From the NCBI RefSeq assembly GCF_020514115.1, contig NZ_VTKZ01000001.1, forward strand, positions 1 to 64,000: a DNA stretch of 64,000 bases. Direction: 5' to 3'. This DNA is from Synechococcus sp. MU1642. Lineage in GTDB: Bacteria; Cyanobacteriota; Cyanobacteriia; PCC-6307; Cyanobiaceae. Below the pieces are notes generated by a model that saw only the letters and a program-made list of their open reading frames with translations, was not told where the DNA came from and did no database searches. A program made the translations under genes and the position numbers. This document shows, one piece after another, positions 5,974 through 52,729 of the stretch; the first letter of the stretch is position 1, and each line of letters opens with the position of its first letter.

Positions 5974-7362
5974 TCAGTCGAGGTCGGGCATGCCGAGCAC
6001 AGGCTCAGCCTTGCGGTCGATGCCTTTCTCGAAACCAGCAGCAGCAGCGCGAGCGCGGCCGGCGTGCCAGAGGTGACCAACCAGGAAGAAGAAGGCAAGC
6101 ACAAACTGCGTTGCACCCAGCCACTGGCGAAGGTTCACGTAGTTCACCGAGTTGGGCTCGGTGATGATGCCGCCCACAGAGTTGATCGAGGCGTTGGGAG
6201 CGTGGGTCATGTACTCAGCCGCACGGCGCACTTGCCAGGGCTGAATGTCGTTCTGCAGCTTGTCGAGGCTGAGACCGTTGGGGCCACGCAGGGGCTCCAG
6301 CCAGGGACCACGGAAGTCCCAGAAGCGCATGGTTTCACCGCCAAAGATGATTTCACCGGTGGGTGAACGCATCAGGTACTTACCAAGGCCGGTGGGGCCC
6401 ATGGCGGAACCGATGTTGGCGCCGAGGCGCTGGTCACGCACCAGGAAGGTGAAGCTCTGAGCCTGGGATGCCTCAGCGTTGGTGGGGCCCCAGAACTCGG
6501 AGGGATAGGCGGTGTTGTTGAACCAGATGTAGGCCGAAGCGATGAAACTCATGAAGCTCAGAGCGCCAAGGCTGTAGCTCAGGTAGGCCTCACCGTTCCA
6601 GATGAAGGCGCGACGCACCCAGCCGAAGGGCTTGGTGATGGCGTGCCAGATGCCACCGAAAATAAGGGTCAGACCCAGCCAGATGTGGCCACCGATGATG
6701 TCCTCCATGGAGTTCACACCGATGATCCAACCCTCGCCACCGAAGGGAGCGCGGAACAGGTAGCCGAAGATCACACCCGGATCGAGGGTCGGGTTGGTGA
6801 TCATGCGGACGTCACCGCCACCGGGGGCCCAAGTGTCGTAGACGCCGCCGAAGAACATGGCCTTAAAGACCAGAAGCAGGCAGCCGACGCCCAGAAGAAT
6901 CAGGTGATAACCAATGATGTTGGTCATCTGATTCTTGTCACGCCAGTCCTGAGAGAAGAAGGAGGAATAATTCTCCAAAATCTCAGGACCACGCAGGGCG
7001 TGATAGAGGCCGCCGAGGCCGAGCACGGCGGAACTGATCAGGTGCAGAACACCGACCACGAAGAACGGGAAGAGATCAGTGACCTCACCGCCGGGGCCCA
7101 CGCCGTAGCCAAGGGTGGCGACGTGGGGCATGCAGATGAAGCCCTGCTCATACATGGGCTTGTCGAAGGTGAAGTGGCTCACCTCGAACAGCATCATTGC
7201 GCCGGCCCAGAACACCATCAGACCAGCGTGGGCCACGTGGGCACCAAGCAGACGGCCGGACAGGTTGATCAGACGGGCGTTGCCAGACCACCAGGCATAC
7301 CCGGTGGAGGAGAGGTCTTTGCCGCCAGTGGCGCCAAGACCGGGATTAGAGAGCGTTACCAC
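5974..7362 (-). CDS. psbC: Photosystem II CP43 chlorophyll-binding core antenna protein
   Basis: CP43 is the inner antenna that binds chlorophyll a, passes energy to the PSII reaction centre and contributes to the oxygen-evolving site. The start chosen is a GTG at 7362 (GTG GTA ACG), giving 462 residues beginning MVTLSNPGL. The longest ORF reaches 7440 but lies inside psbD. An SD-like GAAGAGG sits about ten bases before the GTG. This start overlaps the end of psbD by 17 bases, as is usual for psbDC in cyanobacteria and plastids. Typical features include the membrane segment [20 protein letters not shown], the large lumenal loop, and the C-terminal [14 protein letters not shown]. Confidence 0.97.
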
Positions 7363-8401
7363 GGGGCAGAACCTCTTCAGGGAAGACGAAGTTTTCGTGC
7401 GGCTGGTCAGCCGGTGCCATCCAGGCACGCAGACCTTCATTCAGAAGGATGTTCTTGGTGTAGAAGGTCTCAAATTCGGGATCTTCTGCAGCGCGGATTT
7501 CCTGTGACACGAAGTCATAGGCGCGCAGGTTGAGGGCCAGGCCGATGATGCCGATGGAGCTGGTCCACAGGCCCATCACAGGCACAAACAGCATGAAGAA
7601 GTGCAGCCAGCGCTTGTTGGAGAAGGCGATACCGAAGATCTGACTCCAGAAGCGGTTGGCGGTGACCATGGAATAGGTCTCTTCTTCCTGAGTGGGCTCG
7701 AACGCCTTGAAGGTATTGGCCTGCTCACCGTCCTCAAACAGGGTGTTTTCCACGGTGGCGCCGTGAATGGCGCAGAGCAGTGCACCGCCGAGGATGCCGG
7801 CAACGCCCATCATGTGGAAGGGGTTCAGGGTCCAGTTGTGGAAGCCCTGGAGGAAGAGAAGGAAGCGGAAAATCGCAGCCACACCGAAGGAGGGTGCGAA
7901 GAACCAGCTGCTCTGGCCGAGGGGGTACATCAGGAAGACGCTGACGAACACCGCGATAGGGCCGGAGAAGGCGATGGCGTTGTAGGGGCGGATGCCGACT
8001 AGACGAGCGATCTCGAACTGACGAAGCATGAAGCCGATCAGTGCGAAGGCGCCGTGCAGGGCCACGAAGGCCCAGAGGCCGCCGAGCTGACACCAGCGAA
8101 CGAAGTCGCCCTGGGCTTCAGGGCCCCAGAGCAGCAGCAAGCTGTGGCCCATCGCATCAGCGGGGGTAGACACAGCAGCGGTGAGGAAGTTGCAACCTTC
8201 CAGGTACGAGGAGGCAATGCCGTGGGTGTACCAAGAGGTGACAAAGGTGGTGCCTGTCAGCCAGCCACCGATGGCCAGATAGGCCGTTGGGAGAAGAAGG
8301 ATGCCGGACCAGCCGACAAAAACGAAGCGGTCGCGCTTGAGCCAGTCATCGAGGACGTCAAACCATCCCCGCTGTGGCGCGCGTCCTACAGCGATCGTCA
8401 T
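7346..8401 (-). CDS. psbD: Photosystem II reaction centre D2 protein
   Basis: D2 pairs with D1 to form the PSII reaction centre and binds P680, pheophytin and plastoquinone QA. The ORF opens upstream at 8464, but the family start [15 protein letters not shown] corresponds to ATG 8401, giving 351 residues. The five transmembrane helices and the invariant blocks [35 protein letters not shown] and [16 protein letters not shown] are intact. The gene is first in an operon with psbC. A small stem-loop lies 14-27 bases upstream of the ATG; no strong Shine-Dalgarno sequence is visible. Confidence 0.97.
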
Positions 8402-51061: not shown

Positions 51062-51385
51062 TCAGAGATACTTGGAGATGGTGCCTGAGAGGGTTGCCTT
51101 GGGAACAGCGCCTACCACCGTGTCCACCTTCTGCCCGCCCTTGAACACCATCAGGGTCGGGATGCTGCGGATGCCGTACTGGCTGGCAACGTTGGGATTC
51201 TCGTCGGTGTTGAGCTTGAACACCTTGATTTGACCGTCAAATTCCTTGGCGATTTCCTCAACAATCGGAGCCACCATGCGGCAAGGTCCGCACCAGGGTG
51301 CCCAGAAGTCCACGAGGACGGGCACGTCGCTTTGGAGCACGTCCTGCTCGAAGGATGCGTCGGTGACAGCAGCAGCGCTGGACAT
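51062..51385 (-). CDS. trxA: Thioredoxin
   Basis: This 107-residue protein (ATG 51385; the longer frame lies over Yfr1) has the thioredoxin active site WAPWCGPCR and the cis-proline [12 protein letters not shown]. It reduces disulfides in target enzymes, many of them photosynthetic. The gene follows the small RNA Yfr1 and guaB on the same strand. Confidence 0.96.
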
Positions 51386-51478: not shown

Positions 51479-51547
51479 AAAAAGAGTGAAAGCCCGATCG
51501 CGCCGGGCCGGGGGGTGTGAGGAGTGTGTGGGCCGAAGCCCGCACAC
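51479..51547 (-). ncRNA. yfr1: Small RNA Yfr1
   Basis: The minus-strand sequence between guaB and trxA has the three parts of Yfr1: a stem-loop with a cUUCGg tetraloop (GTGTGCGGGC/GCCCACAC), the ultraconserved single-stranded motif ACTCCTCACAC (51515-51525), and a terminator hairpin (GCCCG/CGGGC) followed by TTTCACTCTTTTT. A -10 box TAAATT (51552-51557) sits about six bases upstream of the likely start near 51546. Yfr1 is known from most cyanobacteria and in Prochlorococcus acts on porin mRNAs. The guaB-Yfr1-trxA order matches its known location. Ends are estimates. Confidence 0.9.
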
Positions 51548-51565
51548 TCCTAATTTAGCCCTGCA

Positions 51566-52729
51566 TTACTTGCCCATTCCGAGGTGCTGGGCCTTTTGGT
51601 AGACCTTGCCCTCCGTCAAGAGGGAGGGTGCCACGACCACCTCCACCTGCTGCATCTCCTTGATGGTTTGGGCTCCCAGAGTGCCCATGGATGTCTTTAG
51701 GCAGCCCAGCAGGTTATGGGTGCCGTCGTCCAATTTGGCCGGGCCTCGGAGGATGCGTTCGATGCTGCCGGTACAGCCCACATTGATGCGGGTTCCGCGG
51801 GGCAGCACCGGGCTTGGGGTGGCCATGCCCCAGTGGAAGCCTCGGCCGGGAGCCTCCTCAGCACGGGCGATGGGGGAGCCGATCATCACTGCATCGGCGC
51901 CGCAGGCGATGCATTTGCAGATGTCACCGCCGGTGACGATGCCACCGTCGGCAACGATCGGCACGTAGCGACCGCTTTCCTTTTCGTAATCGGCCCGAGC
52001 GGCGGCGCAGTCGGCAACCGCCGTGGCCTGGGGAATGCCCACGCCGAGAACCCCACGGGAGGTGCAGGCGGCACCGGGTCCAATGCCCACCATCACGCCG
52101 GCTGCGCCTGCCCGCATCAACTGCAGGGCCACGTCATAGGTGACGCAGTTGCCGATCACCACGGGAACGCCCATGTCGCGGCAAAGGGCTTTCAGATCCA
52201 GGGTTTCTTGGCCTTCAGGTCCGGTGTGGTCCGTTGAGACCACGGTGGCCTGCACAAAAAAGAGATCGGCTCCGGCTTCGGCAATGGCCTTGCCGAAACG
52301 CATGGCGGCCACCGGTGTGCCGCTGACGGCAGCGATGCCTCCCTGGGTCTTGATGTCCTGAATCCGTTTGCGGATCAGCGTCTCTTGAACCGGCTGGCTG
52401 TAGATCTCCTGCATCAGCGGGACGAAGTCGTCCTTGCCTACGGCGGCGATGCGATCTAGCACCTGATTGGGATCTTCGTAGCGGGTCTGAACACCCTCAA
52501 GGTTGAGCACGCCGAGGGCGCCCAGTTGGGACAGGCGAACGGCCATGCCCACGTCCACCACGCCGTCCATGGCGCTGGCGATGATGGGGATCTCGCGCTT
52601 GATGCCCCCTAAGGTCCAACGGGTATCGGTGACCTCGGGATCCACCGTGCGACCCCCAGGCACCAGAGCGATTTCATCGATTCCGTAGGCCCGGCGAACG
52701 GTCTTGGAGCGTCCGAGCTGAATGTCCAC
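51566..52729 (-). CDS. guaB: IMP dehydrogenase-related enzyme without CBS domains (GuaB3 type)
   Basis: The 387-residue protein has the IMPDH barrel but lacks the usual CBS pair, as in the cyanobacterial GuaB3 group, and is about 100 residues shorter than standard GuaB. The active-site loop is GIGPGAACTSRGV with the catalytic Cys. The phosphate-binding region VADGGIVTGGDICKCIACGAD is present. It oxidises IMP to XMP in guanine nucleotide synthesis, or is a close relative. It lies directly upstream of yfr1, which has its own promoter at the end of this gene. Confidence 0.9.
   Translation of the reverse strand: MDIQLGRSKTVRRAYGIDEIALVPGGRTVDPEVTDTRWTLGGIKREIPIIASAMDGVVDVGMAVRLSQLGALGVLNLEGVQTRYEDPNQVLDRIAAVGKDDFVPLMQEIYSQPVQETLIRKRIQDIKTQGGIAAVSGTPVAAMRFGKAIAEAGADLFFVQATVVSTDHTGPEGQETLDLKALCRDMGVPVVIGNCVTYDVALQLMRAGAAGVMVGIGPGAACTSRGVLGVGIPQATAVADCAAARADYEKESGRYVPIVADGGIVTGGDICKCIACGADAVMIGSPIARAEEAPGRGFHWGMATPSPVLPRGTRINVGCTGSIERILRGPAKLDDGTHNLLGCLKTSMGTLGAQTIKEMQQVEVVVAPSLLTEGKVYQKAQHLGMGK

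What the first reader, a model, noticed from the sequence alone, without database searches (positions are those of the whole stretch)
51479..51551. Yfr1 small RNA between guaB and trxA, with a stem that can extend into the promoter
The ultraconserved ACTCCTCACAC, a UUCG-capped hairpin and a terminator are all visible on the minus strand, in the known guaB-trxA location. In DNA, the bases AGGAG upstream of the likely start could also pair with the ACTCCT motif, making a stem of about 14 bp. If transcription starts near 51546, most of that partner stays in the promoter and the motif remains free. A shift in start site by a few bases would hide it, so start choice could control target binding.
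Basis: partly seen in the sequence, partly recalled or inferred. Interest (0 to 1): 0.6.

Follow-up and report, generated by a model that had tools for sequence, protein, structure and literature searches.

The report
Ordinary Yfr1 small RNA gene
This is the standard copy of Yfr1, a well-known small regulatory RNA of cyanobacteria, in its usual place between guaB and trxA; the extra upstream bases that could hide its active motif are most likely part of the promoter and are not conserved, so the proposed start-site switch is unlikely.

Summary
The minus strand at 51545-51489 is Yfr1. Rfam RF01116 scores 67.5 bits (cut-off 38) over the full model, between guaB and trxA. The palindrome is real: AGGAGTGTGcGGGC/GCCCaCACACTCCT, 13 Watson-Crick pairs and one C.A mismatch. 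RNA starting at 51551 would bury ACUCCU (opening cost about 12 kcal/mol); RNA starting at 51545 leaves it free (0.0). The start-choice idea is not supported. The only well-placed -10 element, TAAATT (51557-51552), puts the preferred start, 7 bp downstream, at G51545. This equals the Rfam start and, by homology, the RACE-mapped start in MIT9313. A start one base upstream (51546, a U) costs only 0.8 kcal/mol; hiding the motif needs a start 5 bp or less from the -10. AGGAGT is not conserved: sister strains have GGAAGT and GGAGGT, 6 of 31 genus loci have the full 6-bp extension, and 0 of 62 loci of other genera. Given the genus's own column composition, 5 of 27 distinct sequences against 2.7 expected (P 0.07) is not significant. 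AGGAG is best read as the promoter discriminator. guaB read-through RNA would carry a sealed motif, but no general link with guaB closeness was found.

The parts
51489..51545 (-). Yfr1 small RNA gene (57 nt); predicted 5' end G51545
   Evidence: Rfam RF01116, 67.5 bits, model 1-59 of 59; 7 bp downstream of TAAATT; same boundary as the RACE-mapped MIT9313 RNA 1220973..1221029
51526..51545 (-). 5' hairpin GUGcGGGC-UUCG-GCCCaCAC
   Evidence: fold and Rfam alignment
51515..51525 (-). ultraconserved ACUCCUCACAC target-pairing motif, unpaired when the RNA starts at 51545
   Evidence: sequence; opening cost 0.0 kcal/mol
51489..51509 (-). 3' terminator hairpin GGCCCGG-CGCGA-UCGGGCU with short U tract
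   Evidence: fold, Rfam alignment
51552..51557 (-). -10 element TAAATT of the yfr1 promoter
   Evidence: 51545 is the only start in 51556-51542 with a TANNNT hexamer 7 bp upstream; equivalent element with a 6-nt gap in 57 of 62 loci of other genera
51546..51551 (-). AGGAGT, promoter discriminator that happens to be complementary to ACUCCU
   Evidence: inverted repeat; not conserved
51566..52729 (-). guaB (IMP dehydrogenase), stop codon 20 nt upstream of the Yfr1 start
   Evidence: ORF list, Pfam IMPDH, distance
51062..51385 (-). trxA (thioredoxin)
   Evidence: ORF list, Pfam Thioredoxin

Best explanation
This is the orthologous Yfr1 sRNA of a marine Synechococcus-type cyanobacterium. It is transcribed from its own promoter (-10 TAAATT 51557-51552), starts at G51545 and stops at its own terminator (inferred from sequence and homology). 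The two hairpins keep ACUCCUCACAC single-stranded so that it can pair with mRNA leaders and with Yfr2; target pairing is established in relatives, not tested here. AGGAGT upstream of the start is the promoter discriminator. Its complementarity to ACUCCU is a by-product of purine-rich discriminators in this genus and it is normally not transcribed as part of Yfr1.
For: Rfam full-length match at 67.5 bits and single copy in the genome. guaB and trxA flanks confirmed, the order reported for all marine Synechococcus in PMC2190773. The predicted start coincides with the Rfam start, with the 7-bp preference for start selection (PMC5730371) and with the RACE-mapped MIT9313 start (PMC1242208 Table 2: 1220973..1221029, identical to the Rfam match in L079's genome). 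Motif fully open from 51545. The discriminator sequence is variable: GGAAGT in sister L013, GGAGGT in L007, L009 and L010, GGATGT in L011, GGAGTG in L012. PMC5730371 describes a discriminator directly downstream of the -10 that contacts sigma, and says purine-rich ones favour upstream start positions; a GGG discriminator gave position 7.
Against: No transcript data exist for this strain; the start is inferred. The -35 region is poor (no sigma-70 match called there). In the genus, G and T at -2/-1 are conserved (24 and 26 of 27), which discriminator composition alone does not explain.
Confidence: 0.9

Rival explanations
1. Start-site switch: RNA polymerase chooses between a start near 51551 (motif hidden) and one near 51545 (motif free), so that start choice regulates target binding.
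For: Folding: starts at 51547-51551 cost 3.9-12.3 kcal/mol to open the motif and the six-base extension weakens predicted pairing with one Yfr2 homologue of this genome from -19.4 to -7.1 kcal/mol.
Against: A start at 51551 would be 1 bp from the -10 element, with CAGGGC at the place of a -10. Starts of bacterial RNA polymerase are centred 7 bp downstream, with 6-9 programmed experimentally (PMC5730371); 51546 (6 bp) costs only 0.8 kcal/mol. The complement is absent in the sister strains. PMC1242208 reports a conserved mapped start, and Yfr1 levels unaffected by the stresses tested in MED4.
Confidence: 0.02
2. Read-through insulation: guaB mRNAs that run into yfr1 fold the 13-pair hairpin and hide the motif, so that only RNA from the yfr1 promoter is active.
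For: guaB ends 20 nt upstream of the Yfr1 start. Transcripts starting 30 nt upstream have an opening cost of 13.3 kcal/mol here and over 5 in 25 of 31 genus loci.
Against: 17 loci outside the genus also have guaB abutting yfr1 and are not sealed (median 2.5 against 2.0 kcal/mol without abutting guaB; P 0.85). Read-through itself is not shown; PMC1242208 considers cotranscription with guaB less likely.
Confidence: 0.06
3. The palindrome is an operator for a DNA-binding regulator of the yfr1 promoter.
For: Inverted repeat AGGAGTGTG / CACACTCCT spans -6 to +26.
Against: One half is the Yfr1 RNA itself, fixed for other reasons; the other half is not conserved even in sister strains.
Confidence: 0.02

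Closest known systems
Yfr1 (Rfam RF01116), Prochlorococcus MED4/MIT9313 and Synechococcus WH8102
   Same: Length 57 nt, two hairpins, open ACUCCUCACAC, terminator, guaB-yfr1-trxA order, start 7 bp from a -10 element.
   Different: Nothing of substance; the discriminator AGGAGT happens to be complementary to ACUCCU in this strain.
Yfr10 / Yfr104 / Syr5 (other sRNAs with the Yfr1 motif, PMC6778093)
   Same: Share the motif and are separate small RNAs.
   Different: Lie at other loci with other 5' parts; this genome has a separate candidate (G000:C20:233079-233089, minus).

Membership tests
Yfr1 (RF01116) | Covariance model score above the gathering threshold | tested here: met
   67.5 bits against 38, full model
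Yfr1 (RF01116) | ACUCCUCACAC in an unpaired linker of 16-20 nt between two hairpins | tested here: met
   16 unpaired nt, motif opening cost 0.0 kcal/mol from 51545
Yfr1 (RF01116) | Rho-independent terminator at the 3' end | tested here: met
   7-bp GC-rich stem with short U tract; the simple scan did not list it, presumably because the T run is short
Yfr1 (RF01116) | Location guaB > yfr1 > trxA (usual, not obligatory) | tested here: met
   PMC2190773 Table 2
Yfr1 (RF01116) | Own promoter with start just before the 5' hairpin | tested here: inconclusive
   -10 TAAATT 7 bp upstream of G51545; no transcript data
Yfr1 (RF01116) | Accumulates as a stable 54-69 nt RNA and pairs with targets | not testable with these tools
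   needs Northern blot or reporter assay

The most novel reading that the evidence does not exclude
In this strain and a few relatives the promoter-side complement of the motif (11 of 11 bases in L019 and L020) is kept because guaB read-through or mis-started transcripts must not carry an active Yfr1 motif.
Probability: 0.05. Interest if true: 0.45.

Novelty: already known. Interest (0 to 1): 0.12.

Why it matters
As it stands it is routine annotation: one more Yfr1 ortholog with a clear promoter. If the start-choice idea were true, a shift of a few bases in transcription start would switch an sRNA off, which would be notable; the evidence speaks against it.

Tried and rejected
A second, plus-strand Yfr1 match (25.7 bits, below the cut-off) is the palindrome read backwards, not a second gene. 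RsmZ-like and PVT1-like matches are far below their cut-offs. An exact pattern with the Yfr1 core found nothing in viral contigs, so no sign of phage-borne copies of this type. The MAFFT alignment had two rows (L013, L019) on the wrong strand and was not used. A link between guaB closeness and motif sealing was tested and not found outside the genus. Papers with dRNA-seq of marine Synechococcus gave no Yfr1 start for this clade.

Full report
What is there. On the minus strand at 51545-51489 the window matches the whole Rfam Yfr1 model (RF01116) at 67.5 bits against a gathering score of 38. It is the only RF01116 match in the genome of 2.12 Mb. It lies between guaB (51566-52729) and trxA (51062-51385), all on the minus strand, the order reported for all marine Synechococcus and Prochlorococcus that have the gene (PMC2190773). 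Most relatives have it: 57 of 59 in the first set, 248 of 300 in the family; PMC2190773 reports its loss in two low-light Prochlorococcus strains. The contig lengths of close relatives (e.g. 2,111,515 and 2,510,659 bases) recall, from memory, Synechococcus WH8109 and CC9605, so the window is probably from a marine clade II Synechococcus (inference).

The palindrome. The inverted repeat 51551-51538 / 51533-51520 is real: 13 Watson-Crick pairs with one C.A mismatch and a TTCG loop. Folding RNAs that start at successive bases and run through the terminator gives an opening cost for the motif of 0.0 (51545), 0.8 (51546), 3.9 (51547), 4.6 (51548), 7.9 (51549), 11.6 (51550) and 12.3 kcal/mol (51551). 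Predicted pairing with one Yfr2 homologue of this genome (G000:C10, L139) falls from -19.4 to -7.1 kcal/mol with the six-base extension.

Where transcription starts. The only start between 51556 and 51542 with a TANNNT hexamer 7 bp upstream is 51545, with TAAATT at 51557-51552; for 51551 the hexamer is CAGGGC. Bacterial polymerase prefers position 7, and 6-9 have been programmed experimentally (PMC5730371; E. coli enzyme, carried over by inference). G51545 is also the first base of the Rfam match. In MIT9313 (L079; contig of 2,410,873 bases) the Rfam match 1220973-1221029 is exactly the RNA in Table 2 of PMC1242208, which mapped a conserved start by RACE; its gap from the -10 element is also 6 nt. 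In other genera the gap is 6 nt in 57 of 62 loci. A one-base shift upstream would not hide the motif; hiding needs a start 5 bp or less from the -10.

Is the upstream complement selected? In a guaB tree the sister of this strain (L013) has GGAAGT, the next (L009) GGAGGT, and other close relatives GGAGGT, GGAGCT, GGATGT or GGAGTG. AGGAGT therefore most simply arose on the terminal branch here. The full six-base complement occurs in 6 of 31 genus loci (L001, L004, L016, L019, L020, L093) and in 0 of 62 loci of other genera. Among 27 distinct genus sequences 5 have it; 2.7 are expected when the columns are shuffled between sequences (P 0.07); the mean number of consecutive pairs is 3.15 against 2.64 (P 0.009). 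These shuffles ignore relatedness, so they overstate the signal. What is conserved is G and T at -2 and -1 (24 and 26 of 27) and a purine-rich stretch after the -10 element. PMC5730371 describes a discriminator there that contacts sigma; I take AGGAG to be that (inference).

Read-through. guaB's stop codon is 20 nt from the Yfr1 start, so guaB RNA running on would carry the sealed hairpin (13.3 kcal/mol from -30). The genus shows this widely (25 of 31 over 5 kcal/mol), but 17 loci elsewhere with abutting guaB do not (median 2.5 against 2.0 kcal/mol without; P 0.85). I keep this only as a minor rival.

How it works (from the literature, not tested here). In an E. coli reporter assay, MED4 Yfr1 represses a porin leader (PMM1121) and Yfr2 counteracts it (PMC6778093). 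In Nostoc, Yfr1 regulates cell-wall genes such as murC, mraY and amiC2 (PMC6974561). Yfr1 was stable and its level unaffected by the stresses first tested in MED4 (PMC1242208); a later study saw a decline in high light and at least 2.6-fold induction after long N starvation (PMC6778093).

Verdict. The Yfr1 identity is right, and kind and place are already known; the start-choice mechanism is unlikely.

Noticed in passing
window 6759-6945 (+): Rfam IsrR matches at 152 bits, but the minus strand there is a photosystem II CP43-type gene (5974-7440), apparently psbC rather than isiA; the match probably reflects CP43 / IsiA coding homology rather than an IsrR gene.
   Followed up: partly
G000:C20:233079-233089 minus (L138, L142): Another copy of ACTCCTCACAC followed by a strong terminator, conserved in six relatives (L143-L148): a likely Yfr10-type sRNA.
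   Followed up: partly
G000:C10:20686-20754 plus (L139): Yfr2-family RNA (Cyano-1, RF01701) carrying the perfect 11-nt complement GTGTGAGGAGT of the Yfr1 motif; two other copies (L140, L141) lack the perfect complement.
   Followed up: partly
L019 and L020, upstream of yfr1: The entire motif complement GTGTGAGGAGT overlaps the -10 element, so that both strands hold ACTCCTCACAC; opening cost from -30 is 21.4 kcal/mol.
   Followed up: partly
genus loci L002-L006, L015-L022, L024-L029, L091-L093: The -10 to Yfr1 gap is 7 or 8 nt, with GT just before the hairpin; a start at position 7 would pair the first one or two motif bases (0.8-4.4 kcal/mol). Unexplained.
   Followed up: no
window 51426-51397 (-): trxA promoter-like site TTGAAA-18-TAAATT ends only 11 bp before the trxA ATG (51385), so the trxA mRNA may have a very short leader.
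   Followed up: no
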